This document shows, in pieces, positions 15,317-60,017 of a stretch of DNA of 64,000 nt. The notes beneath the pieces were generated by a model that was not told the origin of the DNA, did not search any database, and saw only the letters and a list, made by a program, of their open reading frames with translations. This DNA is from Shewanella dokdonensis (GTDB lineage: Bacteria > Pseudomonadota > Gammaproteobacteria > Enterobacterales > Shewanellaceae): the NCBI RefSeq assembly GCF_018394335.1, contig NZ_CP074572.1, positions 3,534,001-3,598,000 of the forward strand, given 5' to 3'. The position numbers were made by a program, and so were the translations under genes. Position 1 is the first letter of the stretch. Each line of letters begins with the position of its first letter.

Positions 15317-16767
15317 TCATAACGCCTGTTTTATGGTGTGGTATTGCTTAACCGTCGTTGCTGCGGGTGGCAACAACAGACTAACCGCAATGCCTGTAAT
15401 CGACGCAAACACAAATCCGGGCAATAGTTCATATAAGGCAAAAATACCGCCATTTGCCTGTTTCCAAAAACAACGGTAACGGCACCGACTATGATGCTGG
15501 CAACGGCACCTTGACGGCTGTAGCCATGCCAGAACAGTGATAACAGCACCACAGGACCAAATGCCGCGCCAAAGCCTGCCCAAGCATAACTCACTAAGCC
15601 AAGAACGCTGCTTTTAGGATCCAGCGCAATAATGCCTGCCAGTATTGCAATTGCCAACACGGCTAAGCGTCCCACCAACATCAGTTCGCGATTGGACGCT
15701 TGGGGCCGTATCCAGCGGCGGTAGAAGTCTTCGGTGACCACACTGGAGCACACCAGCAACTGTGAATCTATGGTTGACATAATGGCTGACAAAATCGCCG
15801 CAATCAGGAGACCGCCAATCCATGGATTAAAGGCCACTTGAGTGAGATGAATAAACACGGTTTCTGGGTTATCCAGTGGCTTATCCGCAAAGTACAGCAT
15901 CCCGGCTATCCCGGTGGCTAACGCCCCAAGCAGAGACAACAGCATCCAGCTCATGGCGATGCGGCGTGATACCGGTAACTCTTTGGTACTGCGTATCGCC
16001 ATAAAGCGGCACAAAATATGAGGCTGACCAAAATAACCCAGGCCCCAAGCTAAGGCTGATAGCAAGCCAATAAATGTCAGCTTGTCGTTGAACAGTGACA
16101 ATAATGCGGGGTCTAGCGTATCAAGACTTTTGTGGCTTTCGGGATGGGTAAACATGCTCACAGGAACAATTAACAGCGCTAGCAACATGAGACAACCTTG
16201 AAAGAAATCGGTCCAGCTAACAGCAAAAAAACCGCCAACAAAGGTATAAGCCACAATGACAACCGAACCAACAACCAAGGCTAACCGGTAATCCATGCCG
16301 AATACTTTTTCAAATAAAATGGCGCCACCCACCATGCCGGAAGAAGCATAGAAGGTGAAAAACAGCAGAATTGTCAGCGCCGATACCAGTTTTAACAGGC
16401 CACTTTTATCGGCAAAACGTTTTTCAAAAAAGTCGGGGAGGGTGAGGGCGTTATCGGCCATTTGTGTGTATATCCGCAAGCGTTTGGCGACCAGTAACCA
16501 GTTAAGCCAAGCTCCCAACAACAGCCCAATACCAATCCAGGCTTCACCCATGCCCCCAAGATATACCGCGCCAGGAAGCCCAAGTAACAACCAGCCAGAC
16601 ATATCCGATGCGCCTACGCTAAGGGCGGTGACCGCCGGGCCCATCTTGCGGCCACCCAGAATATAGTCGTCGAGCGAATCTGTGGCGCGGTATGCCCAAT
16701 AACCGATTGCCAGCATGGCAGTAAGATAACCAATAAAGGTGATAATGATAGGCGTGTCAGTGACCAT
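15317..16767 (-). CDS. putP: Sodium/proline symporter PutP (C-terminal frameshift)
   Basis: A sodium:solute symporter of about 483 residues once the frame is restored. The N-terminus MVTDTPIIITFIGYLTAMLA and then DDYILGGRKMGPAVTALSVG align with PutP openings. The SSS-family landmark GLGYFGQPHILCRFMAIRS and the late segment STIDSQLLVCSSVVTEDFYR are present. Family knowledge: PutP imports proline with Na+ for osmoprotection or catabolism. The run of five A at 15466-15470 (T on the coding strand) is one base short. Without the correction the tail reads GNRQMAVFL instead of WKQANGGIFALYELLPG. Start at 16767 chosen by family length; a GTG at 16830 would add 21 unlikely residues. No proline dehydrogenase gene is adjacent. 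Confidence 0.87.
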
Positions 16768-17010
16768 AAAGATATTTGTAAAATTATTGTTATCAATGTC
16801 TTGCATGCTAACAGATGGGAATGTCAGCACACAACATCTGTACTGTAATTACACCATAATGGCAGTCGTTGCTGCTTGACCAGATAACGCTGTAGACTGT
16901 CGCTTGATTGACATGTGTGCGGTGAGCTTTACTGTTGCAATGAGCATATGGCGGATGCGTTCATTTTGGCTCATGAGCATAGAAATCTGACCATTCAATA
17001 AGTTGCATTA

Positions 17011-17052
17011 TTGCTTATTGCTTATTGCTTATTGCTTATTGTTTATTGCTTG
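17011..17052. repeat. 7-bp tandem repeat TTGCTTA, about six copies
   Basis: Four exact copies (17011-17038) are followed by two one-mismatch copies. The repeat overlaps the 3' end of the Sel1 gene and supplies its stop codon, so a change in copy number would alter the C-terminal residues and the stop position. Confidence 0.9.
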
Positions 17053-18393
17053 GTTGCTCAGTTAAGTGTGCCAGCTGTTGCTGCGCTGGTCGATACCCTT
17101 GATTGGCGGCCTGTTGATACCAATAAAGTGCTTGCTGGTGATCTTGAGAAATGCCTAATCCCAATTCGTAAGCTGCTGCGAGATTATTTTGTCCAACGGC
17201 GTCCCCTTGTTTAGCTGCTTTGGTAAACCACTCAACGGCTGTGCTATCGTTACGTTTTACACCTTCCCCGTAGTGATACAGCATGCCCAACGCGACTTGT
17301 GCATAAACGTGGCCTTGCTGTGCCGCTTGTTGATAGTAAGTCGCTGCCAGTTGGTCATTGTGTGCCACACCAGTGCCATTTCGATAGTAGTTGCCTAAGC
17401 GATATTGTGCGCTGGCCACACCATGTTCAGCCGCTTTTTTAAACCAAACAGCAGCTTGTTGGTAATCTTTTGTTACCCCGTGGCCCATACGATATAACTC
17501 ACCGATGGCATTTTCAGCCTGAGCATTTCCTTGAAGTGCTGATTTCATAAACCAATTCAAGGCTTTAATATCGTCTTTTGGGAACAGTTTGCCTGTTTGG
17601 TATTGCTTCCCGAGCATGTATTCGGCGTCAGCATCACCCAGGTTGGCCGAGGTTCTATACCAATTAAGGGCCACTAAACTACTATGTTCTAATGCTTTTT
17701 TATACCACTCGTGGGCTTTCGCTTCGTCTTGCTCAATCCCATCGCCGATTTCATAACGTTCAGCCAGCATCTCTTGGGCGGCCGTGAAGTTGTTGTTGGC
17801 TGCGGCAAAATACCAGTAAAACGCTTGCTGTTTGTTGGGCGCAATACCTTCACCAAGTTCATAAGCTAACCCTAGGTTATATTGGGCTTTGCCGTAACCT
17901 TGTGCTGCTGCCAGTTGTAACCATTTCACCCCTTGTTTTGGATCTGGCGCGACACCTCGACCTTCAAGATAAATCCATCCCAACAGATTTTGTGCATAGG
18001 CTGAGCCTTGCTCGGCGGCGTGCTGTAATGTGGCCAGCGTTTGCTGATGTTGGGTGGCTGGCACGTTTGAGAATTTGTACATTGAGCCAATACTTATCAA
18101 TGCATTGTCATCTCCTTGTGCCGCGGCCTTTAAAACCACTCCACGGCAGTTTCATCGTTACTGGTAACCCCATTACCCAGTTGATACATAGTTCCTAGCA
18201 ACTGCTGCGCATCAGCTAAGCCATTGTCGGCTAATGGTTTAAGTTGCTGTATGGCGGTTTGATAATCTGCATGTTGATAGGCTTGCAGTGCACGTTGGTA
18301 CGCTAGGTAGGGCGGCAGTGACGTTGTAGAGGTACAACTGGTGCAATAAAACAGGGTGAGAAGAACGCCAATGACAGATTGATAACGCAACAT
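17036..18393 (-). CDS. Sel1-repeat (SLR) lipoprotein, frameshifted
   Basis: About 452 residues when restored. The N-terminus MLRYQSVIGVLLTLFYCTSC is a signal peptide with a lipoprotein-type cysteine. The rest is roughly ten Sel1 repeats with the A-x-x-x-LG-x-x-Y-x-x-G-x-GV pattern (for example AQNLLGWIYLEGRGVAPDP, AQYRLGNYYRNGTGVAHND). Family knowledge: Sel1/TPR-like solenoids are protein-interaction scaffolds, often in envelope or signalling contexts. One base is missing in the A-run 18132-18135 (coding TGGTTTTAAAG where VEWFLKAAAQG needs one more T). Its end lies inside a 7-bp tandem repeat. Co-oriented with the Bat operon but separated by about 235 bases. Confidence 0.85.
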
Positions 18394-18551
18394 GGATTAT
18401 TCGAGTAAGGAGTAGTATTAGTGATATATATCATATGGTTATCTAGATGGAAATGAATATATCAAGACCTTCTTTTTTGAGGCATAGTGTTTACTGGCGG
18501 TGTTAAGTCATTGGCTGGTAGCGTTACACCAGTAAAAACGTGTAAACGAGC

Positions 18552-18574: not shown

Positions 18575-18628
18575 CAAGGTTGGTAAGGTTGGTGTTTTAA
18601 CCACAACGATTGATCATGAATGGCTTAG

Positions 18629-22312: not shown

Positions 22313-23292
22313 GATGACCTCCCGGCAGGTTTTATGGCGGGCAGGAACTGGCTGAGACTAAGTGCCAAACTGAGTAATAATGCCAGTCCTAGTGGCCAGT
22401 AAAACAGTTCCGATTGCGGCCGGTAAGTGAGCGGATCGCGGCTTATCGGTTGCAAACGGTCTATCTCCTGATAAATCTGTTGCAGTTCTTTAGGATCACG
22501 AGCGCGGAAATATTTACCATGGGTAACATCGGCAATCCGTTTTAACTGGTCTTCATCCAGATCCGCCGATGGATTGACCCGCTCGATACCAAACAAGGTC
22601 CGGCGTTCCATCACATCAGCGCCTACGCCTATGGTGTAAATAGTGACATGACGCTTGGCAGCAATGGCGGCAGCCTGATCCGGGTCAATATTGCCTGCAT
22701 TGTTGGAGCCATCGGTCAACAGCACTAATACCCGGTTACTCTTATCGAGATTATCAAACCGCTTCACCGCCAGCGCGATGGCATCACCAATCGCCGTTTG
22801 TTTGCCCACCAGACCAATCTGTGCTTCCTTGAGATATTGGGCAACCGAGCGGCGATCCTGTGTTAACGGCGCTTGCAGATATGCTGCATCGGCAAACAGG
22901 ATCAGGCCGATACGGTCACCGGCGCGGCGTTCGATAAAGTCACTGACGACTTTTTGGATCACACTGAAACGGTCTACGGTTTTGCCGTCCAGCACCATAT
23001 CTTCAATCTGCATACTGCCGGAGAGATCCACTGCAACCATCAAGTCGCGGCCCTGCGTTGGCAACTCAATGGGATCGCCCAACCACTGTGGCCGCGCCAC
23101 AGCCAGTAGCAACAGTGACCATAACAACCAGATAATCCACGGTCGACGTCGCTGACTGCTCACTTCGGTCAGCGCATATTGGCGGATGCCCGGCATTTGT
23201 AACTGACCACTGCCAACGCTTGTTGGGCGAAAACGGATGAATAGCGGCAATGGCAGTAATAGTAGCAACCACCACCAAGCGAGTGTCAGCAT
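22309..23292 (-). CDS. batA: VWA domain membrane protein BatA
   Basis: A 327-residue protein with an N-terminal helix (AWWWLLLLLPLPLFIRF), a second helix around residues 50-68 and a C-terminal one near 300-318. These enclose a VWA domain with an intact MIDAS: DLSGS near residue 90 and LTDGSNNAG near 193. Family knowledge: BatA pairs with BatB in the inner membrane and exposes the VWA domain to the periplasm. The upstream DUF4381 gene overlaps it by 7 bases and BatB overlaps its end, so the proteins are probably made in fixed ratio. Confidence 0.9.
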   Translation of the reverse strand: MLTLAWWWLLLLLPLPLFIRFRPTSVGSGQLQMPGIRQYALTEVSSQRRRPWIIWLLWSLLLLAVARPQWLGDPIELPTQGRDLMVAVDLSGSMQIEDMVLDGKTVDRFSVIQKVVSDFIERRAGDRIGLILFADAAYLQAPLTQDRRSVAQYLKEAQIGLVGKQTAIGDAIALAVKRFDNLDKSNRVLVLLTDGSNNAGNIDPDQAAAIAAKRHVTIYTIGVGADVMERRTLFGIERVNPSADLDEDQLKRIADVTHGKYFRARDPKELQQIYQEIDRLQPISRDPLTYRPQSELFYWPLGLALLLSLALSLSQFLPAIKPAGRSS

Positions 23293-23801
23293 GACTTGCC
23301 TCCTTTACTGGCGCGCCGATAATAGCTTGGTGCACAGAGTAACCATTGCTGACACAAGGTTTTGAGTTCTTCGCCGTCTTCGGCGGAAGGGCGCATCTGG
23401 TAACGCTGTTGTAGTAAACGCTGGAATTTTCCTTGCTGTTTCACCGGCAAAGCCTGATCCAGATACTGATACCAGCATTCGCCGGTAAGGCTAGCAACTT
23501 GCTCGCGGCCACCATAACTGATGGCGCAGCGCTTGAGTAGCGCACTGAGTTGCAGCATCAGTTGCGGATCTTCGCTGTCCAACTGTGACAAGAGTTGCAG
23601 CGCTGCTTTGGCACGCCTGTTGCCGCCGTTTTTGTTGGTGGCGCAAATATAGCCATACGCTCAAGGCGATGAGTGACAATAAGGCCAGAATGAACAGTGC
23701 CAATATGGCTGGCGCAGGCGGCCAGAAACCTATCTCAGGGGAAGCCGGATATCCTTCATGGCACTGAGCGCCGGATTGGCAGTAGCGGTAGTTGGCGTCA
23801 T
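23286..23801 (-). CDS. DUF4381 membrane protein of the Bat operon, two frameshifts
   Basis: About 171 residues when restored. It opens MTPTTATANPALSAMKDIRL, continues PPEIGFWPPAPAILALFILA into a membrane helix, then a basic stretch (YLRHQQKRRQQ), and ends KGGKSC. The position between DUF58 and BatA and the PEIGxWPPAP phrase identify the DUF4381 family, whose function is unknown. The frame breaks at the G-run 23738-23741 (one base missing) and near 23611-23620 (one extra or two missing). The ATG overlaps the DUF58 stop as ATGA. Confidence 0.78.
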
Positions 23802-24739: not shown

Positions 24740-25696
24740 TAGGGCACGGCCACCTGGCTGAGAATATGGTTGATCACTTCATCACGGCTAATGCCTTCTG
24801 CCTGTGCTTGGTAACTTAGCAGCAAGCGGTGGCGCAATACATTTGGCAACACTGCTTGAATATCTTCCGGTGCTACAAAATCTCGCTGGTACAACCAAGC
24901 GCGGGCGCGGGCACAACGTTCAATGGACTGGGTGGCGCGAGGGCTGACACCATATTCCAGCCATTTTGCCAGTTCGTCGCTGTAGCGTTGTGGTTGCCGG
25001 GTTGCCATCACCAAATCAACAATATAGCGCTCCAGTGGCTCAGCCAGATAAATTTCCAGCGCTTGCCCCCTGGCATTAAAGATGTCGTCCTGGGAAATTG
25101 GCGTCATCTTTTCCATGCTGCGAGTCTTGGCTTCATTGCGTGACAGCCGCAAAATTTCCAACTCTGTGTCTGCACTTGGATAATCCAGGTTCAGGTGCAT
25201 CAGAAACCGGTCGAGCTGCGCTTCCGGTAACGGGTAGGTACCTTCATTTTCTAACGGGTTCTGGGTGGCCATTACCAAAAACAGCTGCGGTAATTTGTAG
25301 GAATGTTTACCAACGGTCACCTGACCTTCGGCCATGGCTTCTAGCAGCGCCGACTGTACTTTGGCCAGGCGCGCGGTTAATCTCATCCGCTAAAATCAGA
25401 TTGTGAAATATCGGCCCAGCCTCAAACTCGAACGTGCCGGTTTGTGCGCGGTATATATCGGTTCCGGTCAAGTCTGCCGGGAGTAGATCTGGGGTAAACT
25501 GGATCCGGTGAAAATCCCCTTGAATACCGTCACACAGCGCTTTCACCGCGCGGGTTTTTGCCAGTCCTGGCGGGCCTTCTACCAGTAAATGACCATCGGC
25601 AATCAATGCCAGCAGCAGATTTTCGGTTAACGAGGGCTGACCGACGATGACGTGGTCAAGGTATGTTCTTAATGCGTGAAAACGACTTAACGGCAT
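24739..25696 (-). CDS. MoxR-family AAA+ ATPase (frameshifted)
   Basis: About 318 residues when restored. The Walker A motif GPPGLAKT is at about 42-49, FTPDLLPADLTGTDIY follows, then Walker B ILADEINRAP and the MoxR-specific KVQSALLEAMAEGQVTVG. Sensor-1 MATQNP and the lid region EYGVSPRATQ are also present. Family knowledge: MoxR ATPases act as chaperones that activate or assemble partner complexes with VWA proteins, here the Bat set. The frame is broken near 25365-25368 (coding CCTGGCC where INRAPAKVQ needs one base fewer), so this is a one-base gain. It is the first gene of the six-gene overlapping operon. Confidence 0.88.
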
Positions 25697-26061
25697 AGGG
25701 CTTCTCTTATCATGCTCGTGCAGCAGCGGCTGCAGGGTTTTCCTGTCATTGTGCGGAATATTACAGGGCGATTGAAGTACAAAATGCTATGAATTAAAAG
25801 TTAATTTTTCTTAAGGCAGGCACTTGGAGCCTTGTCTGTATTATGCCATGCGCTGTTGCTATAGACAGAACTGTTGGCCGATTTATCCTGCGATGATGGC
25901 AGTTGCCGATAATTTATCCAGTGGAAAATCCAAACAAGTGTTTAAAACTTAGAGAGAAGAAGTTAGAATCAGATCACATTTTAATGGTCAGACCTGTTGG
26001 GTGTATGTCTGGCTAGGGATTTCAGTCTGTGGTCATGGACCAAATATAACGAGGATAACAG
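25697..26061. other. Divergent promoter region between the MoxR operon and fadIJ
   Basis: About 365 bases of non-coding DNA feeding two divergent operons. It contains a PsrA-like palindrome at 25931-25944. The fadI ribosome binding site is AACGAGG, several bases before its ATG. Confidence 0.6.
25931..25944. promoter_or_regulatory. Putative PsrA-type fatty-acid regulator site upstream of fadI
   Basis: CAAAC AAGT GTTTA fits, with one mismatch, the G/CAAAC-N2-4-GTTTG/C pattern described for the TetR-family regulator PsrA in Pseudomonas; PsrA-type control of fad genes is also known in Shewanella. It lies about 120 bases before fadI. Assignment is by motif and context only. Confidence 0.4.
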
Positions 26062-27378: not shown

Positions 27379-29507
27379 ATGGAAATGACAGAAAAAACCT
27401 TCAACCTCAGTGTGCGGGATGATGGCATCGCCTTGTTGACGATGGATGTTCCCGGCGAAACCATGAACACCTTGCGGGCCGAATTTGTCCCAGAAATGAC
27501 CGAACTGCTAGCACAGATCCGCGCCGATCAGCGCATCAAAGGTCTGGTGGTGATCTCTGGTAAAAAGACTCGTTTGTTGCGGGGGCGGACATTGCCATGT
27601 TGGATGCCTGTGATACCCGTGATAAAGCCAGCGAGTTATCGGCCGCCGGACATCAAGTGTTTGGCGAACTGGAAAAATTAGCAATCCCGGTAGTGGCGGC
27701 CATTCATGGTGCATGTCTCGGCGGCGGTCTGGAGTTGGCTCTGGCGTGCCATAAGCGTGTTTGTACTGACGATGGCAAAACTATGCTGGGGTTACCGGAA
27801 GTGCAATTAGGACTGTTGCCCGGCAGTGGCGGAACCCAACGTTTGCCAAGGCTGATAGGCATCGCCAAGGCGCTGGATATGATGTTAACCGGTAAACAAA
27901 TCCGGCCGAAACAGGCATTGAAAATGGGCTTGGTGGACGATGTTGTGCCACAGACCATTTTGTTGCAAGCGGCGATTGAATTAGCCCAAAACGGTAAAAA
28001 ACGCGCGAAACGCAAAGCAACCTTGATGGAACTAGCGTTGGAGCGCACCCACTTTGGCCGCAATATATTGTTCGATCAGGCATTAAAACAGGTGGAACGT
28101 AAGACTCAGGGCAATTATCCCGCGCCGCCTAAAATTATTGATTGTGTGCGCATCGGCGCTGATGAAGGCATGGCGGCAGGTTTGGCGACAGAATCCCGTT
28201 ATTTTGGCGAATTGGTGATGACAGCAGAATCCGCCGCGCTGCGTTCTATCTTCTTTGCGACCACCGAAATGAAAAAAGAGACCGGTGCTGACGGCGCCGA
28301 ACCGCGGCCGCTGAAAAAAGCGGTTGTGCTCGGCGGTGGTCTGATGGGCGGTGGTATTGCCTCGGTCACCATTAGCAAGGCCAAACTGCCGGTACGGGTA
28401 AAGGATATCAGCGAAAAAGGGCTGTCTAACGCCTTGTCCTACGCCTATAAACTGCTGGATAAAGGTGTTAAGCGGCGCCATATGAGTGCAGCGCAGCGGG
28501 ATAAACAGATGGCGCTGATGAGTACCACTACCGAGTACCGTGGCATACACGATGCGGATATCGTGGTGGAAGCGGTGTTTGAAGATCTAAAACTCAAGCA
28601 TCAGATGGTGCAGGATATTGAACGCGAATGTACTGCACATACGGTGTTTGCATCCAATACCTCTTCCTTGCCAATCGGTCAGATTGCCGCCGTGGCCAGC
28701 CGCCCAGAAAATGTCATTGGGCTGCACTATTTTTCACCGGTAGAGAAGATGCCGCTGGTGGAAGTTATTGCCCATGAGAAAACATCTTCTGAGACCATCG
28801 CCACTACGGTTGCTTTTGCCCGTAAACAGGGGAAAACCCCGATAGTGGTAAAAGATGGTGCCGGATTTTATGTTAACCGTATCCTGGCGCTTTATATGAA
28901 CGAAGCGGCGCAACTACTGCTGGAAGGCCAGAGTGTGGAACAGCTGGATCAGGCGCTGGTGAAATTTGGTTTCCCGGTGGGCCCGATGACATTGCTGGAT
29001 GAAGTCGGCATTGACGTCGGTGCCAAGATCTCACCCATTCTGGAACAAGCGCTGGGTGAACGTTTCCGCGCGCCAGCGGCGTTTGAAAAACTGCTGCAAG
29101 ATGAGCGTAAAGGGCGTAAGAACGGCAAGGGTTTCTATCTGTATGGTAAAAAGAAATCCAAGAAGAAACAGGTGGATAGTTCTGTCTATAAAGTGCTGGG
29201 GATCACCCCAGGCGTGGCCGCAGATAACGAACAACTGGCACAGCGCTGCGTAGTGCAGATGTTAAATGAGGCGGTGCGCTGTCTCGATGAAGGCATTATC
29301 CGCAATGCCCGTGATGGTGATATCGGTGCCATTTTTGGTATCGGTTTCCCACCGTTTCTGGGCGGGCCATTCCACTATATTGATACTTTGGGTACCGCTA
29401 AACTGGTGGAGATGCTGGAAGGTTATCAGTACCGTTTGGGTGAACGGTTTGCCCCTTGCGAACGGCTGAAAACAATGGCGGCAACTGGCCAGCGTTTCTT
29501 TGACTAA
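27379..29507 (+). CDS. fadJ: Multifunctional fatty-acid oxidation protein FadJ (frameshifted)
   Basis: About 709 residues when restored. The N-terminal enoyl-CoA hydratase domain includes the oxyanion-hole region [18 protein letters not shown] and then [19 protein letters not shown]. The 3-hydroxyacyl-CoA dehydrogenase domain starts [16 protein letters not shown] with the catalytic histidine in [20 protein letters not shown]-terminal HAD domain follows. Family knowledge: FadJ hydrates and oxidises the beta carbon and passes product to FadI. The A-run at 27562-27566 is one base short, turning [13 protein letters not shown] into KKTRLLRGR. The gene starts 6 bases after fadI ([10 protein letters not shown]) and ends at a strong terminator. 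Confidence 0.93.
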
Positions 29508-34631: not shown

Positions 34632-37013
34632 ATGGTCACCAAGTCATGTGCCAAGGTATTCGTGGTCAGTGCCGTTGCCTTAGCCCTTGCCGCCTGTAAC
34701 TCTTCTAACGATGACACTACCACGTACACAAACCCGGGATTACCCGCGGGAACATCGGCAACCCACAGTGTTGCTGAACCTGTGTTATCGGGCAATGACA
34801 TTGCCGTGGTGGATGGAAATCTCCCTACGACTAACAACAATGGCAATATTGTTGCTTTCGACCCTTCCGTTAGTCCTTTGATCCAAATCCTGAGTGGTTT
34901 TGATGATATTTGGTATGCAGGCGATGATACTTGGGCCATGACTGGCTCTTCTGAATCGAAGGCGATTGCGGCAGGTTATGAAGCTTATCCAGGCGTAGTT
35001 GGTGGTGGCACTAACAGCACGTCCTATGCCATTCCTTTCAATTTTAGCCATGAACAGATCCGCAACAAGAGTGTCTGGCAGGAAAACTTTAATTATGTAA
35101 AACAACTGGTTGAAAACTCAACTAAAGCAGAAAAGGTTGCTGCATATTTAGATGATCAACGAGATAAAGGCTTCAGCATCTCCTCTGGCTTAGGGCCGAT
35201 GACCGCCGATTATCAAAGCGGCGCGAATGCGACCTCTTCCTATAGTGTTAATGCTAATGGTGATGTGGTGCTGACTGACGCAGTTAGCGGTGAAACCCAT
35301 GTGATTGACATTGAAAATACCAAATACAATGGCAATCTCTATGAGAGCCTGGCGAATTCAACCCGAACTGGCTTTGGTTCGACATCCGTTGATGGTGAAG
35401 CAACGGCTTTAAGTGATGTCGTAGTTTTATTGCAAACCGTTGCGGCTTATGGTGCGTCTACGGAAGCGCCTAAATACCATTTTGAGTCTCCCCGTCCATG
35501 GCGTATCAATGCTGATGATTACAGTACCGTGAATGTTAATGATGCTTCTGCAAGCATCTACAGCACCATTACCGACATTAGTGCACTAGAAGAAGATGCG
35601 TGTTTGGGGCTTGATGGACAAGCGGTGGCTGCATACAAATATTATGAGCGTCCGGCCAATCCAATCGTGCTGCCTATTACCGGTTTATTGTGCGCAGCGC
35701 GTACTACGTATTACGGCAAAGATAGTGACAATGACGGTGTTCCTAATAGTTTCAGTGAATTTGAAGGGGATACTAAGACTGCCGTCAATAGTCTTCCTGC
35801 ATTGTATTCAAGCAGAGCGAAAGATGGTGCGTTTCCCAGTGGGCATACCGCTGAAGCATTTGACCGTGGCTTGATCTATGCCTACGCCATTCCTGAACGT
35901 TTTGCGGAAATGGTTGCACGGGCAGGCGATCTTGGCACTGATCGTATCGTTGCCGGGATGCATTCTCCGTTAGATGTAATTGGTGGCCGTATTATGGCCA
36001 CGGCTATTGCTGCGGCAATGTTATCTGATAATAACAATGCACTCGCAGCCGAAACTGCGGTAGAACAAGCTCAGAAGTATTTCCTCACCAAGGCGCAAAC
36101 CGCAGGATACGACACTGTTTATGATTACGCTCACTGTACCACTGATGTGACTAAGCCTTGTGATTTGACTGACCAGTATGCGGATAGAGCCGCGATGAAA
36201 ACGCGCTATCGCCAAAGTATGACTTACGGTTTTACACCGTTGGCAGAAGCAAGCGCCGCGCCCGAAGTGCCAAAAGGCGCCGAAGTACTGTTGAAAACGC
36301 GTTTCCCATATCTGGATGCAAACCAGCGTCGTCAAGTTTTGGCCACCACTGAAATAGATGCTAATTATCCGGTTATCAATAAGTCTCGTGGTTGGGGACG
36401 CCTCAATTTAGTTGATGCGGCAGATGGCTATGCGGCGTTTAACAGTAATGTGTCGATATACATGGACGCGAACCGCGGTGGCTTTAATGCGATTGACCGC
36501 TGGATGAATGATATTTCTGGTGATGGCCGTCTAGAAAAAAGTGGTAGTGGTACGCTTTATCTTACTGGCACCAATAGTTACCGCGGTGGCACAGTGTTGG
36601 AACAAGGAACGCTAGTGGCTAGCTCGGCTTCTGCCTTCGGTAACAATACCCTTTACCAAAAGGATGGTACGGTAAAAATATCGATAGGCGCTGGGGCTGA
36701 AACGGCGGCCGCAGGTGCCTTGACGGTTACCGATTTCGTTATGGATGGCGGTGTATTGGCGCTTGATCTTAACCGTAATGCACAGCTCAAGGCGACCACT
36801 GGTATCTACCTGACCGGAAACAATCTGTCACTGGATTTAAAGGTTCCGCCACTGACGGCGGCAACCCGTTATACCGTGCTGAATAGCCAACATCTGGAAG
36901 GTAAATTTACTGAAGCTAATATCAGGGCTACCGATGCGTCAGGCACCGTATATAAGGTGGCGATGGTTTATACCGATACCTCTGCGCAAGTGACCGTTAC
37001 ACCGAAAAACTAA
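34632..37013 (+). CDS. PAP2/class A acid phosphatase lipoprotein with autotransporter-associated repeat
   Basis: A 793-residue protein with a lipoprotein signal (LALAAC, Cys at 22). The middle carries the PAP2 motifs: FESPRPWRI near 283, PSGHTAEAFDRG near 402-413 and GTDRIVAGMHSPLDVIGGR near 434-452, so the phosphatase site looks complete. After about residue 600 the protein changes to beta-helix-like sequence with an autotransporter-associated repeat (GSGTLYLTGTNSYRGGTVLE), but no C-terminal autotransporter barrel follows before the stop (VTVTPKN). Family knowledge: PAP2 enzymes hydrolyse phosphomonoesters in the periplasm or at the surface. Inference: a surface or periplasmic lipoprotein phosphatase with a passenger-like stalk. 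Monocistronic with a strong terminator. Confidence 0.85.
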   Translation: MVTKSCAKVFVVSAVALALAACNSSNDDTTTYTNPGLPAGTSATHSVAEPVLSGNDIAVVDGNLPTTNNNGNIVAFDPSVSPLIQILSGFDDIWYAGDDTWAMTGSSESKAIAAGYEAYPGVVGGGTNSTSYAIPFNFSHEQIRNKSVWQENFNYVKQLVENSTKAEKVAAYLDDQRDKGFSISSGLGPMTADYQSGANATSSYSVNANGDVVLTDAVSGETHVIDIENTKYNGNLYESLANSTRTGFGSTSVDGEATALSDVVVLLQTVAAYGASTEAPKYHFESPRPWRINADDYSTVNVNDASASIYSTITDISALEEDACLGLDGQAVAAYKYYERPANPIVLPITGLLCAARTTYYGKDSDNDGVPNSFSEFEGDTKTAVNSLPALYSSRAKDGAFPSGHTAEAFDRGLIYAYAIPERFAEMVARAGDLGTDRIVAGMHSPLDVIGGRIMATAIAAAMLSDNNNALAAETAVEQAQKYFLTKAQTAGYDTVYDYAHCTTDVTKPCDLTDQYADRAAMKTRYRQSMTYGFTPLAEASAAPEVPKGAEVLLKTRFPYLDANQRRQVLATTEIDANYPVINKSRGWGRLNLVDAADGYAAFNSNVSIYMDANRGGFNAIDRWMNDISGDGRLEKSGSGTLYLTGTNSYRGGTVLEQGTLVASSASAFGNNTLYQKDGTVKISIGAGAETAAAGALTVTDFVMDGGVLALDLNRNAQLKATTGIYLTGNNLSLDLKVPPLTAATRYTVLNSQHLEGKFTEANIRATDASGTVYKVAMVYTDTSAQVTVTPKN

Positions 37014-39669: not shown

Positions 39670-40148
39670 TCATTGTTTCTGCTGCTCGGTATATTTGCCG
39701 TAACCAAAATGTTGAATATCTTGCTTACTGGCACCTTCATGGCATTCACCTCGTAACTCGGCTCGGTCTTGTAGTACCAAACGTTCCAGCTCATAGTAAC
39801 CATCACGGCAATATAGGTTGGCTTCGAGCGTTTTTTGCAGACCAATTTCCAGTTCTTGCGTCATCAGTTTATTTTCAGTGCTACCTCGACGCCCCATGCG
39901 TTGTGAACGCATGTCATCCTGAGGTTGGGGGCGAGAATGCTGGCGCTCAGGTGTTTCTGCTGACTTCTGCCGATGTCTATCAGCGGTCACTGCGGTAACA
40001 CTGTAGGTAAACAGTTTCATTCCATCACTTTTAATTTCTGTCTGGAAGCTATCGGTGACTTTGCTGCAAATTGCGCCGGATCTGGCGTGCCAGAGCCAGG
40101 CAGATAAGAGTAGCAATGTGATGGGGGCAGCAATAATGGTAAGCGCAT
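39670..40148 (-). CDS. Hypothetical membrane-anchored or secreted protein (frameshift in signal region)
   Basis: About 159 residues if one base is restored in the G-run 40123-40127. Then an ATG at 40148 with AAGGAA upstream gives MRLPLLLPPITLLLLSAWLW, a signal peptide or N-terminal anchor. Without correction only a TTG start at 40116 is available. The mature part has a region rich in Arg, Gln and Ser and a conserved-looking segment with two cysteines (EANLYCRDGYYELERLVLQD, RGECHEG). I do not recognise the family. It sits 3' of the RDD gene, 59 bases away and in the same direction. Confidence 0.65.
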
Positions 40149-40661: not shown

Positions 40662-43600
40662 TTAGTTTGCGCTCAAGTTTAACTGAGCCTGAGCTTCAGT
40701 CTTATTGAGCTTGGTTTTACTGTCCAGCAAAAATACTCGTTCTGGGGCTACAGCGACGTTATCTACCAGAAAAGCTTTGACAGCTTGGCTGCGACGCTGA
40801 GCTAGGTTCCCTAGGTCGGCATCGCTGATGACTTCGGCATTTAACAGCTGGTTATACAAACCTATATGCCACAAAGTGGTCAATTTGGCCTGGTCGATGT
40901 TTCCTTTATCGTCAGTGGCCACCTTTTCAGCATTAGCTTTTTCAGCGTTGGGATCCGCATTAAATTGCTTTTGATATAGTGCTAGTAGCGCATCGGTGAG
41001 TTTGCCCGATGCTGGAATACGGCTGGCGCTGAAATCTGCGGGTAAACTGTCAAGTCCACTTTGCTGTAACAGTTGCCGTTGTAATTTATGTTCTGCCATC
41101 GCTTGGCTGTCTTGTTGTGGATTGACAGAGGCTTCGATACTCAATGTCAGTTTCGGGCGTTCACTGAGCGCTCCGGCAAGTTTTTGCAATTTGTCCTGCT
41201 CGGATGGCGAGAGCTTAGCGGAACCGGCATCAAATGCTACCAGATTGAGCTCTTCATCGCTGCCAAGTAAGCCCGCGAGGAATGAAAAGGGCGCCGTTAC
41301 AGCTTTGGTTATCACATTGGTTAATGCCGAGAGAATAATGCCACCAAAACTGAAGTCTGGATTGTCTAGATCGCCCGAAACGGGTAAACCAAGGTCAATC
41401 ACACCGTGTCTGTCCTGCAGTAATGCGATAGCCAAGGTGACAGGTAGGCTTGTTGCCAGTTTTGAATCAGTCGGTTTCCCAAGTTGCAACTGGTCGATGA
41501 CAACATGGTTATTGCCTTTAAGATGGTTATCTTGCAGTTGATAATTCAGTGCCAGCGTCAATTGGCCTTTATCGATGTAGTAGCCAGCGTAGGTTCCCGA
41601 ATAAGGGTTCACTGTGGTGAGTTCTACACTCTTGAATAATAGATCCAGATCCAAATAGGGTTGTGGCAATAGCGGATTGATTTCGCCCTTGAGAGACATA
41701 GGCGCATAACGGTCAATCTTACCGGCAATATCCACTGTGGCCTTGGTTCCTGGGACGGAAGACAAACTGCTGATTTTGCCATGTAGTTGCTCAATGCCGG
41801 TGGCAAAATTAGGCGTTAGTGAATTGTCGGCAAAATAGGCCGAACCATTGCTGAAGTTGATACTGGCAACGGTGATTTTCAATGGCTGTTCAGCTGGAGT
41901 CTTGGCTGGTGCGGTGGCACTTGCCACTGTCGGTTGGGCGGTGGCCGCCGCAGTGGTATCGCTAGCGGTTTGCTTGACCATCAGCTCACCAATATTGGTG
42001 GTCCGGTCTTCATTAATAGTCACTTTGGCGTATGGTTTTTCTAAAGTGACATTACCGAGCAACAGTTGTTTTTTGTCCGCATCAAAGTCCACGGAATCGA
42101 TCGCCAGTTGCTGCCATTTAAGTAACGGCCGTTTTTGCTGCAGATCTTTGATCTCCAGATCGCTGACAGCAATATCCCCTTTATAGCTGGCGTGTCCCGC
42201 AGTATCTGCGCTGAAATCCCCCGTACTGCTAATCTGGCCTTTTGGCAGCTCGATATTCAGATAGTGAGTCAGATACGGCTGGAACTGGTTCAGCAACAAT
42301 TTGCTTAATGTCAGTTTGCCACTAACTTGCTTGCTGGCAAGATCAATAGTGCCTTCACTGCTGAAATTGCCGCCACTGTCTGTTGCATGATTCTGTGATA
42401 CGTCCAGCGCTATTTGATAGCTCAGCGGTGTTGATAATTGGCTGTCAATGCCACCAGTGTTGACTGTCAGCGGGTATACTCGCCAATCAACGCCGTTGCT
42501 AAGTTGTTGTTCATGTACATTTATATCGGCAGCTTTTAGGTGAAAGGCTGCAAGTTTCACCAGCCATTGGGGTGTTGAAGAGGCTTGATCTGCACTCGCT
42601 GCTGCTGGCTGTGACTCGGTGGCGGTTGGGACAAATAGTGGCACTAACGCCAGTCCGTTTTTATCAAAACGGCTATGCAGCCATAACCCCTCAATCGTCA
42701 CATCTGCAATGTTCACTTGCTGTGGTTGGCTGCTTAACGCAATCTCACCAACGCGGAGGCTTGGCAGCTTGATGACGGGGGTACTGCCATCGGTAAGTTG
42801 CACATTGTTAACGGTGACAAAGGTGTTATCAAGGCGATAAGACAGCGGTTGCCCCGGTGTTTGAGCGATAACATAGTGGGTTTTTAATGAAACAGCACCA
42901 TCGGTCAACTGTGCTTTCAACATAGGTTGCACATAGCCCCAGAAGGGGGCAGGGTGATATTTTGCAGTTGCAGCTGACCGTTAATCTGTAATGGCTGTAG
43001 TAACAATTGCCCATCAGCCGCTAAAGTACCTTTGTCCTGTCCATGAAATGATAACTGATATTGATTCGACAGCGTTTTTTCGTTGTTGCTACTCACTGTA
43101 TTGCGGGTGCCGAAATTATGCAGGCTGAAATTGATATCGTGATAACTGAGGTGAGTATTGGCGCTGTTATCCTCAAATACCATGTTGCTATTTGACAGGG
43201 TTAGCGCATTAATACGGAAGTCTGGTAGCTGAGAATCCTCTGCCGGTTGCGCGGCTGCTGGTGCCGCTGGTGTTTGTAAGCGAGCCACAATATCGTCGAA
43301 GTTAAAGCCGATATTCCCTTTGGTATCAGCGGCTCGTATAACCTGGCCTTGTAATCCATCAAGTTGTAGATGATCAACACACCAAGCTCGGCTAAACAGA
43401 GATTGCCACAGGTTAAACTCAGTTTCTGCATGTGTCAGGGCCAACAGCGGTGTCGCGGATTTCCCGGAAATAACCAAATTGTCCAGCCGAACCCGGAGTA
43501 AAAAAGGATTGATCTGCACGTCCTGTATCGATACTTGGCGCCCCAACAGCTGGGTTAGCTTTTCGGGGGCAATTGCACGCACCACCGCGGGTGTGACCAA

Positions 43601-43714
43601 CCCGAGTAAAAAAGCGTAACCAAGATAAAAGGCTGATAGCCAACTGGCGATTCTTAAGATCCTCGGTGCTTTTTTATACGCCGCGACCATTCCTTTGAAT
43701 CTGGACAATATCAT
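40662..43714 (-). CDS. DUF748 (AsmA-like) envelope protein, frameshifted
   Basis: About 1017 residues when restored. It starts with a membrane helix (SAFYLGYAFLLGLVTPAVV), followed by AsmA/DUF748 repeats (VQINPFLLRVRLDNLVISG, then YAKVTINEDRTTNIGELMVK). The C-terminal part has an OmpA-like peptidoglycan-region feel (KLTLSIEASVNPQQDSQAMA; RRSQAVKAFLVDNVAVAPERVF). Family knowledge: AsmA-like proteins form periplasmic beta-rich bridges thought to move phospholipid between membranes. The frame breaks near 42943 where one base is missing (LPPFWGYVQPML expected; raw frame gives LPPSGAMCNLC and stops). The RDD gene follows closely. Confidence 0.85.
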
Positions 43715-49085: not shown

Positions 49086-49844
49086 TTACACCACATCAAT
49101 ATCGACAGCGCTGTCAAATACGTGATTAGGGCGGAAGGGTTCCAGCTCGATATCTTCACGGCGCGTGACACCGGTCAGTACCAGAATCGTCTCAAGGCCG
49201 GATTGAAGCCCGCAAGTATATCGGTGCGCATGTTGTCACCGATGATCACGGTATTTTCTGAGTGTGCCCCCATATGATTCAGCGCCGAGCGAATGATCAG
49301 CGGGCTGGGTTTGCCTACATAAAATGGTTTACGACCAGAAATCACCTCAATTGGAGCACATAAGGCACCACAACCCGGGCTGAAGCTGGGGCCGTGGGTA
49401 TCGGGGTTGGTGGCAATGAAACGGGCGCCTTTGGCAATAAAGGCGGCGGCTTTACGGATCATATCCCAGTGATAAGTGCGGGTTTCACCCACAATCACAA
49501 AATCTGGGTTGATATCTGTGATAGTAAAGCCGGCATTGTAGAGCTCATGAATTAACGCGCCTTCCCCCAATCACATAGGCTTTGGCATTGTTTTCGCCAT
49601 TCTGATGTTTAAGAAAATTGGCGGTCGCCATGGCAGAGGTATAAAAACATTGCTCGGGAATTTCCGGGATCCCGGCAGCCGCTAGGCGGTTTTGCAGATC
49701 TTTACCAGTTTGTGCAGGATTATTGGTGAGCACAACCAAGGGATTTCCTTGTTGCAGTATTTTGGCAATAAATTTGTCGCTACCGGGCACCAGCTTGTTG
49801 TCGTGCATCAGTACGCCATCGATATCACAGATAATGTTTTTCAT
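49086..49844 (-). CDS. nagD: Ribonucleotide monophosphatase NagD (HAD-IIA), two frameshifts
   Basis: About 252 residues when restored. HAD motif I is DIDGVLMHDN, motif II VVLTNNPAQTGKDLQNRL, a C2a cap follows (VGETRTYHWDMIRKAAAFI), and the last motifs are YVGKPSPLIIRSALNH and IIGDNMRTDILAG. Family knowledge: NagD dephosphorylates UMP and GMP. The run of five C at 49564-49568 has one base too many (AYVIGEGALIHELYNAG expected). One base is missing near 49208-49211 (DILAGLQSGLETILVLTGVT expected). With both fixed the tail ends DIDVV. It is separate from the nag operon in this window. Confidence 0.88.
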
Positions 49845-49896
49845 TGCCTTCCTATGCGAAGTGTTACGGCTAGTTCTGCTAACTTAGCAAGTTATA

Positions 49897-49931: not shown

Positions 49932-50572
49932 TCAATCGGCGGCATAACCACCAGCATCTAGTGGCTGATCATCCAGCCAGGCTTTGCCGTCAGTCATCTT
50001 GAGTCGTCCTTCGGCAAACCATTTGATGACCAGCGGGTAGATGGCATGTTCCTGTTCATGCACTCGCTCGGCCAGTAACTCGGCGGTATCATCCTCAAAT
50101 ACGGGCACTTTGGCTTGCAGGATAACCGGGCCGGCATCCAGCGTTGGCGTGACAAAATGTATGCTGGCGCCGTGTTCTTGCTCTCCCGCATCGATGGCGC
50201 GCTGATGCGTGTGCAGGCCGGTATATTTAGGCAGTAGTGAAGGATGCACGTTAATCATCCGGCCTTGAAAGGCGGTGACCAGTTCATCGCTAAGAATGCG
50301 CATAAAACCAGCGAGCACCAACAGATCTGGCTGGCACTGTTCAATCGCTGCATGCAGTCGTACATCATAGTCTGCACGGGATTCTCCAGGACTAGCCACT
50401 ATGCAGTGAGTGTCGATCCCGGCGTCACGAGCCCTGACTAAACCATAGGCATCTGTTCGGTTACTGATCACCCCAACCACCTGATAGGGGCTTTCGGTAA
50501 AGCGTGATCAATAATGGCCTGCAAATTACTACCGTTGCCGGAAATCAGTACCAAGACGCGACACACCGGCAT
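49932..50572 (-). CDS. purN: Phosphoribosylglycinamide formyltransferase PurN (frameshifted)
   Basis: About 213 residues when restored. The N-terminus [20 protein letters not shown] has the phosphate-binding loop SGNGSNLQ; the active site HPSLLPKYTGLHTHQRAI and ASIHFVTPTLDAGPVI are intact. Family knowledge: PurN uses 10-formyl-THF to formylate GAR in purine synthesis. One base is missing in the G-run 50487-50490 (LPKAPYQVVGVISN expected). Its ATG overlaps the purM stop by one base (TAATG), indicating translational coupling. Confidence 0.93.
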
Positions 50573-52536: not shown

Positions 52537-53853
52537 TTACAGCACCATGGCCGCAATCCAGCCAAATATCAGCAACGGGATGTTGTAGTGAATAAAGGTT
52601 GGAATGACGCTATCACGGATATGATCATGTTGCCCGTCAGCATTGAGCCCGGAGGTTGGCCCTAATGTTGAGTCAGAGGCTGGGGAGCCCGCATCCCCGA
52701 GTGCCGCCGCCGTGCCCACTAACGCAATCACCGCGGGTGCAGAAAATCCAAAGTGCAGTGCCAGTGGCACATAGATGGTGGCAATAATTGGGATGGTGGA
52801 AAAGAGGAGCCAATCCCCATAGTGATCAGCAATCCCACCAATAGCATCAGGAATGCTGCCAGTGATTTGTTATTGCCGATCAAGTCGCCAATGGTGTTGA
52901 CCAATGTGGCTACCTCACCGGTCTGATTGACGACGGCCGCAAAACCCGAGGCGGCAATCATAATAAAGCCGATATTGGCCATCATGCGTACGCCACGGTT
53001 AAAAATATCCTCATTGTCACTGCGTTTTAGTACGCCAGTAACACTGAAGATCATAAAGCCGGCCAATGCCCCGAAGATCATTGACTCGGTTGTCAGTTGT
53101 ACCACTAGCGTGGTCAGCACTGCGACGATGGCGATCCCGATATTGCGCTTGCATGGCGCTACGGTTTGTATGCCAGCAGCGGGTTCTGGCATGTGGTAAT
53201 GCCGTGGTTTTCGATAAGAGATGAATACCGCTACGAGCAAGCCCAGCAACATGCCGGCTCCAGGGATTAACATGGCGCTGGGAATATCACCAGCGCTGAC
53301 AGCCAGACCATTATGGTTGAGGTTTGCCAGCAAAATATCGTTGAGAAAGATGCCGCCAAAGCCGATGGGTAACACCATATAGGTGGTGACGAGGCCAAAT
53401 GTCAGTACACAGGCTACCAAGCGACGATCCAGTTGCAGACGAGTCATCAACTGTAATAAGGGTGGGATTAAAATCGGGATAAATGCAATGTGGATCGGCA
53501 GCAGGTTCTGCGAACTGATTGACATTGCCAGCAGCGTAACCAGTAGCGTTGCTTTCACCAAGCGTTCATTGCGGTTGTTTTGTTCCTGACCGAGCAATTT
53601 AATGACTGAACCAGAAATCAGACTGGTGAGTCCTGAATGGGATAAGGCAACAGCAAAAGCGCCTAATAAGGCGTAGCTCAAGGCGATCTGGGCACCACCA
53701 CCGAGGCCGGTATTAAACGCCGCAATGGTTGCATTCAGTCCTACCCCCCAACAACCCGGCAACCAACGCACTGATGGTCAGTGCAATCACAACATTGACC
53801 CGCAAGATGCTCAATAGCAGCATCAGGCACACGGCAATAACAACAGCGTTCAT
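52537..53853 (-). CDS. Na+/H+ antiporter family protein (NhaC/ArsB-like fold), two frameshifts
   Basis: About 439 residues when restored, with 11-12 hydrophobic segments. It starts [20 protein letters not shown] and includes [40 protein letters not shown], and near the C-terminus [20 protein letters not shown]. These are typical of the Na+/H+ antiporter_2/NhaC-like family. Family knowledge: members exchange Na+ or organic ions for protons; the exact substrate is unclear. Frame breaks lie at the C-run 53744-53749 (one extra or two missing) and at the A-run 52800-52803 (one missing; [20 protein letters not shown] expected). ATG at 53853. Confidence 0.82.
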
Positions 53854-56013: not shown

Positions 56014-57382
<1,369 letters not shown>

Positions 57383-57408
57383 TGTAAGCTCCTTGATGAA
57401 CTTGGCTT

Positions 57409-58025
57409 TTAATATAGGGAGAGGCTGTTATTGGCCGTATCGACGATAGCTTTGCGGGAGAACACCAGTTGGCGGCGTTTCCCCCTAGTTGACGCCAAAG
57501 CACGGCACTGCGCATCGCTGCTAACAGCAGTGCGCGTATTTTATTCTGTACCTGTTTTTGTTGCAGGATATTGGGATTGCCGGAAATCTGAATTTTTGGC
57601 CCCAGATTACTGATGATATCGCTGTAGATATCGGCAAGATTGGCAATCACTTGTTCATCGGTGACAGCAAAATGCTGTAACTGGCGACGAACTTGTTGGA
57701 TGCGCTCAGACATCATTGCCAAGGCGGCATTGTTACGGCTGAGCTTACGCTCCAATGCCAGCAGTCCCACCAGATAACGGGTGATTTCCACGTCTTTCTG
57801 ATGATTGTCGCCAAGCTGGTTGATCACCCAGCGGTAACCGTTAGCCAACACTTTTTTGTCGGGATAAATATCATCGATGCTGTCTGGGTCTGTCACCAAA
57901 ATGGTATTTAGCGCCGCAGCCAGTTGCTCATCATCGGTTTCACCGTGACGGGCAATGTACTGAACCTGAGCCACGGCTTGCAGTGTTGCCGCCAGTGCCA
58001 TGGTTCTGTCATGCAGTGTGTTCAC
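57409..58025 (-). CDS. hflD: High frequency lysogenization protein HflD (frameshifted)
   Basis: About 205 residues when restored, all helical. It begins [20 protein letters not shown] and has the family stretch [20 protein letters not shown] near the C-terminus. Family knowledge: HflD (YcfC) was found through its effect on lambda CII and is always encoded between mnmA and purB. One base is missing in the C-run 57481-57485; the expected tail is [20 protein letters not shown] and a stop at 57409, while the uncorrected frame runs on into purB. It starts 3 bases after mnmA. Confidence 0.9.
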
Positions 58026-58028
58026 TGA

Positions 58029-59143
58029 TCACTCTCTTATCAAACTGTCTATGATGCCGCCGCCAAGGCAGATATCACCATCATAGAATACCGCGGACTG
58101 CCCTGGTGTGACAGCTGCGACCGGGTTGTCAAAGCTCACTTTGATCTCATCATCGCCATTATAGTGAACCTGACAGGCAACGTCAGATTGACGATAACGG
58201 GTTTTAACGGTTAAGCGTTGGCCATCAGCCGGGCCTTGATGATCAACCCAATGCAATTGGTGGGCGATCAAACCTTGTGACATCAAGCGTGGGTGATTAT
58301 GCCCTTGAGCGACTACCAGCACATTGCGTTTGAGGTCTTTGTCGACTGTGTACCAAGGTTCTTCGCTACCTTCTTTGGTGCCACCAATACCCAGCCCCTT
58401 GCGTTGACCCAGGGTATGATACATCAAGCCTTGATGCGTACCGATCACTTCACCTGCTACGGTTTCAATATTACCCGGTTGTGCTGGCAGATAACGGCTA
58501 AGGAATTCACTGAATTTACGTTCACCAATAAAACAGATACCTGTGCTGTCTTTCTTATCGGCGGTGACCAGCCCTAATTCTTTGGCAATTTCCCTGACCC
58601 GCGGCTTTTCAATATCGCCTACCGGGAACAGACTGCGGGACAACTGCTCATGGCCAAGCGTGTAGAGGAAATAGCTCTGGTCTTTATTGGCATCGGCACC
58701 ACGTAGCATGGTGGTTTTGCCATTGAGTTCGCCGCGGCGCACATAATGGCCCATGGCAATATAATCCGCGTCCAGAATGTCGTCCGCAAAATCTAGGAAT
58801 GCTTTAAATTTGATCTCTTTATTGCACATGATATCTGGATTTGGGGTGCGACCAGCCTTGTATTCCGCCAGAAAATATTCGAATACATTGTCCCAATATT
58901 CTGCGGCAAAATTGACGGTATGCAGCTTGATGCCTAATTTGTCACATACCGCTTGCGCGTCCTGCAGATCGGCTGCGGCTGAGCAATACTCGGTGCCATC
59001 GTCCTCTTCCCAGTTTTTCATAAACAATCCCTCAACTTGGTATCCCTGCTGTTTTAGCAGATAAGCCGATACCGAGGAGTCGACGCCGCCGGACATGCCA
59101 ACGATAACTTTTTTGTAGAAGGATGAGAGTCGATAAAAGTCAT
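58029..59143 (-). CDS. mnmA: tRNA-specific 2-thiouridylase MnmA (frameshift near the start)
   Basis: About 371 residues when restored. The ATP PP-loop is [18 protein letters not shown]; catalytic cysteines are in [12 protein letters not shown] and [12 protein letters not shown]. Other parts are [14 protein letters not shown] and [16 protein letters not shown]. Family knowledge: MnmA thiolates U34 of tRNA Lys, Glu and Gln using sulfur relayed from IscS-TusE. The T-run 59109-59114 (A on the coding strand) is one base short, splitting [12 protein letters not shown] from VIVGMSGG. The true ATG is at 59143. It leads the mnmA-hflD-purB operon. Confidence 0.93.
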
Positions 59144-59640
59144 AAAAGCTGATTCACCGTTAAACACAGACTGGGTTGCTTCTCCCGTTAGCTTGCATAT
59201 GAGTAACGCTACAATGAAAAGCCACTTGCCGCGCAAGGGTTTGGCGACAATCAGAGAAAAGTTAACCCGGATAATTGGTCGCGTATTCTAGCACGGCTTG
59301 GCGTTAGCTGCTAATGCCTGAAATGGTTCATTGCCAAACAGGTTGGCATTTATTGGTGATGATTGCTGTCTGATTTTGGGCCGGTAGCGCCCAGCCTGAT
59401 AGCGGCAGTGTTTGCTACCGCTTGTTATTGCCCGTATCGACTCGATAGGCGGGGGGGATGATGAGCTGAGAATAGCTGTCGCCTAGCACTTTTCCGTTGC
59501 TGGCAAACGCCAGTTGGGCGAGTAATAAACGATGTAATTGCTATCTGTCAGGCGCTGGAGTGGGGCATTTTTGCCATGGCAAAATGCCCCTCTGGCTCCT
59601 TAAACAGATGTGATCTGCTGCTGTGACAACCAGTAACGAC
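59144..59640. other. Non-coding stretch between mnmA and the VOC gene, with possible gene remnant
   Basis: About 500 bases. In E. coli this place is occupied by nudJ; I find no intact NUDIX gene. A 41-codon minus-strand frame (59415-59540, LLLAQLAFASNGKVLGDSYS then QLIIPPAYRVDTG) looks protein-like but has no start codon and may be a remnant. A near-perfect palindrome GGGGCATTTT...AAAATGCCCC is at 59562-59590. Confidence 0.45.
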
Positions 59641-60017
59641 TCATTTCGCAGCGGTGACAGCGTAACGAATGCGATAACCATCAGGATCGGCGATAGTAAA
59701 TGCAGTAGCAAAGTCCATAGCTGTCGGTGGTTGGAGCAGCGGTACTGCCAGCGCCAAACAGTGCTGATACTGTGCCTGAAACGCCAATTGATCGTCAGCA
59801 TATAGACAGAGTTCCCCTGGCGTACCCTGGGTTATTGTGAGTGGTGGAATAACGGCTGCTTGCTGCCAAATGCCCAAAGATAGGGATTCGTTCAGCATGT
59901 ACAACGCAAATTCACTGGAAGTGTGTACGGGGGCTGCCCGAACAATGCGGTATAAAATGCCTGACTCTTGGGCACATCTGCGACATAAAACACCACGGTA
60001 GCTCTTGCAACTGACAT
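59641..60017 (-). CDS. VOC-family (glyoxalase/bleomycin-resistance fold) protein, frameshifted
   Basis: About 125 residues when restored. It starts MSVARATVVFYVADVPKSQA and continues FYTALFGQPP, a typical VOC N-terminal strand-helix. The C-terminal ADPDGYRIRYAVTAAK matches the DPDGN-type last strand. Family knowledge: VOC proteins include metal-dependent lyases, dioxygenases and antibiotic-sequestering proteins; no specific substrate is evident. One base is missing in the G-run 59929-59933 (GQPPVHTSSEFALYMLNES expected). It lies directly downstream of the YafY-type regulator and is probably its target. Confidence 0.8.

What the first reader, a model, noticed from the sequence alone, without database searches (positions are those of the whole stretch)
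15317..60017. About 22 frame breaks in 17 conserved genes: a homopolymer-indel signature rather than gene decay
Breaks lie at 15466 (putP), 18132 (Sel1), 19279 and about 19438 (batD), 23612 and 23738 (DUF4381), 25366 (moxR), 27562 (fadJ), 30215 (topB), 40123 (hypothetical), 42943 (DUF748), 46150 (asnB), 49208 and 49564 (nagD), 50487 (purN), 52800 and 53744 (antiporter), 57212 and 57309 (purB), 57481 (hflD), 59109 (mnmA) and 59929 (VOC). Seventeen are one missing base, nearly all in runs of four or more identical bases, and the flanking frames join perfectly. Housekeeping genes are hit, so sequencing or assembly error is the likeliest cause. Anyone predicting genes naively would report false pseudogenes and short proteins.
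Basis: partly seen in the sequence, partly recalled or inferred. Interest (0 to 1): 0.72.

Follow-up and report, generated by a model that had tools for sequence, protein, structure and literature searches.

The report
Sequencing errors posing as broken genes
The apparently broken genes in this Shewanella genome are most likely sequencing and assembly mistakes, because the same kind of lost letters also appears in copies of its ribosomal RNA genes and in the only lysyl-tRNA synthetase gene found in it, so they should not be read as dead genes.

Summary
Twenty-one of the 22 listed frame breaks are supported by intact relatives, an intact near-identical protein or a repeat pattern; the one at 40123 is weak. 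The window is typical of its 4.13-Mb single-contig Shewanella genome: 34 of 89 genes judged by the closest relative and 54 of 177 judged by the second are frame-broken (3.8 and 3.6 breaks per 10 kb), against 0 or 1 in each of four control sets. One-base losses outnumber gains 33 to 5 and cluster at short homopolymers. The rate does not fall with gene conservation, and pN/pS is unchanged. The seven 16S copies are six different sequences, all shorter than in relatives, with 17 copy-discordant deletions and no insertion in 16S+23S. The only LysRS gene found is split. Near-identical intact DUF748 and VOC proteins exist. About 1,300 breaks would be expected genome-wide (extrapolation). This is a known artefact class of long-read consensus sequences. 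Reads and platform were not available, so the cause remains inferred.

The parts
   Evidence: two HSPs in different frames against G057, G005, G015 and G013
17036..18393 (-). Sel1-repeat gene: frame changes near 18132; 5' limit inferred
   Evidence: Pfam Sel1; repeat pattern continues in another frame upstream
   Evidence: three HSPs in three frames, gaps in DNA alignment
23289..23801 (-).
   Evidence: 172-aa homologues in G057 and G005, stop inside the own alignment; two non-triplet gaps against G005
24742..25735 (-). moxR-type AAA ATPase: frame changes near 25366
   Evidence: Pfam AAA_3
27379..29504 (+). fadJ: frame changes near 27562
   Evidence: the later 636 residues are in one frame in 16 of 17 same-genus relatives, G001 being split
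39676..40143 (-). hypothetical gene: possible break near 40123, weak
   Evidence: HSP runs from residue 4 in one frame
40665..43714 (-). DUF748 gene: frame changes near 42945
   Evidence: 1017-aa protein P0123 is 99% and 98% identical to the two parts
49089..49847 (-). nagD-type HAD hydrolase: frame changes near 49567 and 49206
49935..50572 (-). purN (formyl transferase): frame changes near 50488
52540..53853 (-). Na+/H+ antiporter: frame changes near 53745 and 52801
56017..57382 (-). purB: frame changes near 57310 and 57213
   Evidence: three HSPs in three frames; NCBIfam PurB
58032..59170 (-). mnmA: frame changes near 59110
   Evidence: main 355 residues in one piece in 127 of 128 other genus genomes
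59644..60017 (-). VOC/glyoxalase gene: frame changes near 59929
   Evidence: P0121 (125 aa, PF00903) matches both frames

Best explanation
The frame breaks are most likely consensus-sequence errors of a genome assembly that was probably built from long reads without adequate short-read polishing, not damage in the living bacterium's genes. Shown: short deletions, mostly of one base and mostly by runs of four or more identical bases, occur at about 3.6 to 3.8 per 10 kb of compared genes, in the window and in each other stretch compared. They do not spare conserved genes, and deletions of the same kind occur in copies of the rRNA genes. Inferred: at such runs the consensus caller settled on a length one base too short, which moves the reading frame and makes a gene look split. 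Untested: the platform and polishing history, because no reads or assembly metadata were available.
For: rRNA: the seven 16S copies are six different sequences of 1520-1534 nt between fixed anchors, while the three copies of G005 and the seven of G040 are one sequence each, all 1536 nt; 17 copy-discordant deletion events at 12 sites in 16S and 23S, no insertion; 10 of 17 at runs of 5 or more; 5 of 7 copies carry at least one. The best lysyl-tRNA synthetase match is split over two frames and the other three matches are at most 31% identical. Census: 34/89, 54/177 and 9/25 genes broken against controls 1/67, 0/68, 1/34, 0/34. Rate by rising protein-identity band 2.3, 4.4, 3.7, 3.2 per 10 kb. pN/pS of broken and intact genes indistinguishable (p 0.92 and 0.87). 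33 one-base losses against 5 gains (p 4e-6). Rate over 16 bins compatible with uniformity (chi2 p 0.32). Near-identical intact proteins for VOC and DUF748. G+C runs of 6 or more rarer than in six relatives pooled (2.2 against 7.3 per 100 kb, p 0.003; counts worked back). Completeness 96.6% for a single contig, while only 2 of 128 other genus genomes score lower. Literature passages describe the same signature (PMC8011154; PMC12007338).
Against: No reads were seen. Ten of 33 one-base losses are not by runs of 4+, and asnB loses five bases outside a homopolymer. The control pair is not silent: G057 against G005 has 6 one-base losses and 3 gains in 79 kb of coding alignment. A+T runs of 6+ are not depleted (98.6 per 100 kb against 90.5-128.8 in six relatives), and relative G076 has as few long G+C runs (2.0 per 100 kb) as this genome. 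One-base gaps in non-coding alignment are balanced (19 losses, 22 gains), where natural indels are frequent. Nine of the 17 discordant rRNA events are in one copy, two 16S copies have none, and six gaps (16S columns 659, 1446; 23S 95, 869, 2627, 2782) are shared by all seven copies and may be true differences. The stretch L025 has 1 break where 4.2 are expected. The intact proteins P0121 and P0123 differ from the window by 1-3%, so they are not from the identical sequence.
Confidence: 0.97

Rival explanations
1. Real, recent gene decay: the strain carries true frameshift mutations, for instance after a mutator phase with relaxed selection.
For: Unchanged pN/pS argues against old decay but not very recent decay; homopolymer slippage is also a real mutation mechanism (recalled); stretch L025, by gene order a ribosomal-protein region, has fewer breaks than expected (1 against 4.2).
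Against: The breaks also hit the only LysRS gene found, purB and mnmA, do not spare strongly conserved genes, and short deletions differ between 16S copies, which in G005 and G040 are identical. Near-identical public proteins are intact.
Confidence: 0.02
2. The organism tolerates the breaks by recoding: ribosomes slip at short homopolymers and restore the frame.
For: Breaks mostly lie at short homopolymers and both flanks stay under purifying selection.
Against: rRNA is not translated yet shows copy-discordant deletions. Relatives have unbroken frames at the same places, so no conserved shift site exists. Break sites are diverse in base, size and sign.
Confidence: 0.005
3. A mixture: most breaks are errors, but a few in the window are true lesions, the likeliest being those outside homopolymers (asnB, DUF4381, moxR).
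For: These differ in size or sign from the main class; a control relative also has 1 broken gene in 67.
Against: The worst 16S copy (at 2.98 Mb) has four-base and non-homopolymer losses too, so such events also belong to the error spectrum.
Confidence: 0.1

Closest known systems
Residual homopolymer-length errors in long-read-only bacterial assemblies (nanopore systematic errors, Homopolish, PMC8011154; gene-fragmenting errors, Kastor, PMC12007338)
   Same: Mainly indels in homopolymers that shift reading frames; inflated pseudogene counts (151-5298 per genome in one R9.4 pipeline; 1234 in one draft), the range of the roughly 1,300 breaks extrapolated here; deletions peaking after runs of four to five (passages)
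   Different: Platform of this assembly not known; some losses here lie outside runs, and no read evidence was available
Assemblies noted for 'many frameshifted proteins' (PMC10228379, PMC13348387)
   Same: Many split genes from problematic sequencing or assembly; one such assembly was suppressed from RefSeq (passages)
   Different: The flag status of this record could not be looked up, since its name is withheld
Pseudogene accumulation in host-restricted bacteria (recalled, no call)
   Same: Many frame-broken genes in one genome
   Different: Here rRNA copies and a LysRS gene are hit, selection is unchanged and the rate does not fall with gene conservation

Membership tests
Homopolymer-indel consensus artefact of an assembly | Short indels dominate, with a strong deletion bias | tested here: met
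   33 one-base losses against 5 gains in coding alignment; rRNA deletions and no insertion
Homopolymer-indel consensus artefact of an assembly | Association with homopolymer runs | tested here: met
   23 of 33 by runs of 4+ against 13% expected
Homopolymer-indel consensus artefact of an assembly | Genome-wide and blind to gene conservation | tested here: met
   chi2 p 0.32 over 16 bins of four stretches, many with few expected; no fall with identity band
Homopolymer-indel consensus artefact of an assembly | Also hits untranslated conserved RNA genes | tested here: met
   17 copy-discordant deletion events in seven rRNA operons, nine of them in one copy
Homopolymer-indel consensus artefact of an assembly | Same excess of one-base losses in intergenic DNA | tested here: inconclusive
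   19 losses, 22 gains in 9.5 kb, where natural indels are frequent
Homopolymer-indel consensus artefact of an assembly | Accurate reads contradict the assembly | not testable with these tools
   no reads held
Genuine pseudogene decay | Relaxed selection in broken genes | tested here: not met
   median dN/dS 0.032 and 0.034 broken against 0.037 and 0.037 intact (dS near saturation, very recent decay not excluded)
Genuine pseudogene decay | Essential genes spared | tested here: not met
   LysRS split, no other match above 31%; one gene tested this way, essentiality recalled
Programmed frameshifting or recoding | Shift site conserved in relatives | tested here: not met
   relatives' genes are in one frame at these places

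The most novel reading that the evidence does not exclude
A free-living bacterium whose chromosome really carries over a thousand homopolymer frame breaks, including in LysRS and MnmA, and which expresses these genes by general ribosomal slippage, with heterogeneous rRNA operons as part of the same condition.
Probability: 0.004. Interest if true: 0.95.

Novelty: not a real feature. Interest (0 to 1): 0.1.

Why it matters
Gene calls from this genome would contain on the order of a thousand false pseudogenes and short proteins, and several of its 16S copies are probably wrong. Absence or pseudogene calls, pan-genome counts and claims of decay drawn from it should be discounted until it is re-polished. 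The tests used here (16S copy agreement, break rate against conservation, control genomes) could flag such assemblies without reads.

Tried and rejected
Intergenic indel asymmetry was uninformative. Long A+T runs are not depleted, so a simple 'all long runs shortened' model fails. dN/dS rests on nearly saturated dS (pooled pS 0.55-0.66 in the own comparisons) and cannot exclude very recent decay. A regional cause (breaks only from 15.3 kb onward) was not supported: only 5.7 kb of genes comparable with G005 lie before 15.3 kb, with 2.0 breaks expected and 0 seen, p 0.13. The reverse runs 'G057 judged by own' and 'G005 judged by own' give 12 of 107 and 16 of 205 broken genes; I read these as a by-product of using the own genome's broken ORFs as queries and left them out of the controls. 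Stops inside a single HSP were not counted as breaks: 9/89, 16/177 and 2/25 here, 3/67, 5/68, 3/34 and 1/34 in the controls. G040 and G076 DNA alignments at about 70% identity gave many noise gaps, so G057 was used for the indel counts. One search compared 16S copies without turning the minus-strand ones, so its alignments and its count of seven distinct copies are wrong; replace it (six distinct). Two searches on Shewanella and nitrogen fixation listed 12 of 96 and 8 of 45 papers, none titled on a Shewanella nif cluster (listings only).

Full report
What and where. The window is bases 3,534,001-3,598,000 of a single-contig genome of 4,127,406 bases with 96.6% completeness and 2.01% contamination. 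In a census of the genus (129 genomes including this one) two others have lower completeness (G086, G124).

The observation. Proteins of the closest relatives, G057 (about 84% DNA identity) and G005, were searched against the window frame by frame, DNA alignments were scanned for non-triplet gaps, and the local context was read. Nineteen of the 22 breaks appear directly. The VOC break is shown by a 125-aa protein whose two parts match two frames at 100% and 97%. The Sel1 break is seen only from the repeat pattern. The break at 40123 is weak. So 21 of 22 stand.

It is not local. In a gene census, 34 of 89 own genes judged by G057 are frame-broken (39 changes, 3.79 per 10 kb), 54 of 177 judged by G005 (64 changes, 3.56 per 10 kb) and 9 of 25 judged by G040 (10 changes, 3.33 per 10 kb). 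Controls between relatives give 1 of 67, 0 of 68, 1 of 34 and 0 of 34. Genes covered below 70% were left out (3, 4 and 1 for the own genome; 3, 0, 0 and 0 for the controls). Two reverse runs with own proteins as queries (12 of 107, 16 of 205) were left out of the controls because the own ORFs are themselves broken. Split into 16 bins from four own stretches, the G005-based rate is compatible with uniformity (chi2 17.0, 15 df, p 0.32), though many bins have few expected breaks. At 0.356 per kb and an assumed 88% coding, about 1,300 breaks would be expected in the genome.

The signature. Among isolated one-base gaps in coding alignment to G057 there are 33 losses and 5 gains in 104 kb (p 4e-6); the control pair G057-G005 has 6 and 3 in 79 kb. 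Of the 33 losses, 23 lie by a run of four or more, against 13% of random positions. G+C runs of six or more are 5 in 224 kb here against 56 in 765 kb of six relatives (p 0.003, counts worked back), but relative G076 is as low, and A+T runs are not depleted. Intergenic gaps were uninformative (19 losses, 22 gains).

Why error rather than decay. First, the rRNA genes: the seven 16S copies are six different sequences of 1520-1534 nt between fixed anchors, while the three copies of G005 and the seven of G040 are one sequence each, 1536 nt. There are 17 copy-discordant deletion events at 12 sites in 16S and 23S, with no insertion; 10 of 17 are at runs of five or more. Nine of the 17 lie in the copy at 2.98 Mb, and two copies have none. 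Six gaps shared by all seven copies were not counted, since they may be true differences. Second, an essential function: the LysRS gene is split over two frames, and the other three matches in the genome reach at most 31% identity; its essentiality is general knowledge, and an unrelated LysRS class was not searched. Third, the rate does not fall with conservation: 2.3, 4.4, 3.7 and 3.2 per 10 kb in rising identity bands. Fourth, pN/pS does not differ between broken and intact genes (p 0.92 against G057, 0.87 against G005; no broken gene above 0.5). Fifth, near-identical intact proteins exist: DUF748 in P0123 (1017 aa, 99% and 98% to the two parts, source tag 'lgn', which I take, from recall, to be assemblies of public reads) and VOC in P0121 (source not shown). 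Sixth, MnmA's main 355 residues are in one piece in 127 of 128 other genus genomes; the exception, G135, is in three pieces.

Recoding is not a general account: rRNA is affected, relatives' genes are in one frame at these places, and the sites share no fixed sequence.

Known context. Passages of the Homopolish paper say that residual nanopore errors are mainly homopolymer indels that shift frames, with 151-5298 pseudogenes in one R9.4 pipeline (PMC8011154). Passages of the Kastor paper report 1234 pseudogenes (23.3%) in a draft, with deletion errors peaking after runs of four to five (PMC12007338). Passages of two papers mention assemblies with many frameshifted proteins (PMC10228379, PMC13348387). 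The present case fits that class. What stays open is the platform, and whether a few of the breaks outside homopolymers are true.

Noticed in passing
G000:C1 2632179-2633086 and 2637693-2639125 (in L178); G005 homologues in L197: NifH-type and NifE-type nitrogenase genes (NCBIfam equivalogs on the G005 proteins) lie in this Shewanella and in G005; both are among the frame-broken genes here. Two paper searches (partial listings) showed no paper titled on a Shewanella nif cluster.
   Followed up: partly
G000:C1 2982131-2983657 (L143, L160): The rRNA operon at 2.98 Mb carries nine of the 17 copy-discordant deletion events, four-base losses included.
   Followed up: partly
G135:C1 776327-777393; G001:C52 6625-8534: Other Shewanella genomes with a split gene: mnmA in three pieces in single-contig G135, fadJ in two pieces in G001. 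They may be further error-rich assemblies.
   Followed up: no
   Followed up: partly
window 34632-37013: A 793-aa ORF with weak PhoC-type acid phosphatase and autotransporter-repeat matches in one protein; in one frame here and in G057 at 85% identity.
   Followed up: no
L025 (own 1600001-1620000): This stretch, by gene order (recalled, not family-searched) a ribosomal-protein region, shows 1 break in 11.8 kb where 4.2 are expected; may be chance or lower run content.
   Followed up: partly
window 34.2-37.4 kb against G005: The homologues of the genes on either side lie about 55 kb apart in G005 (stretches), which points to an insertion or rearrangement.
   Followed up: no
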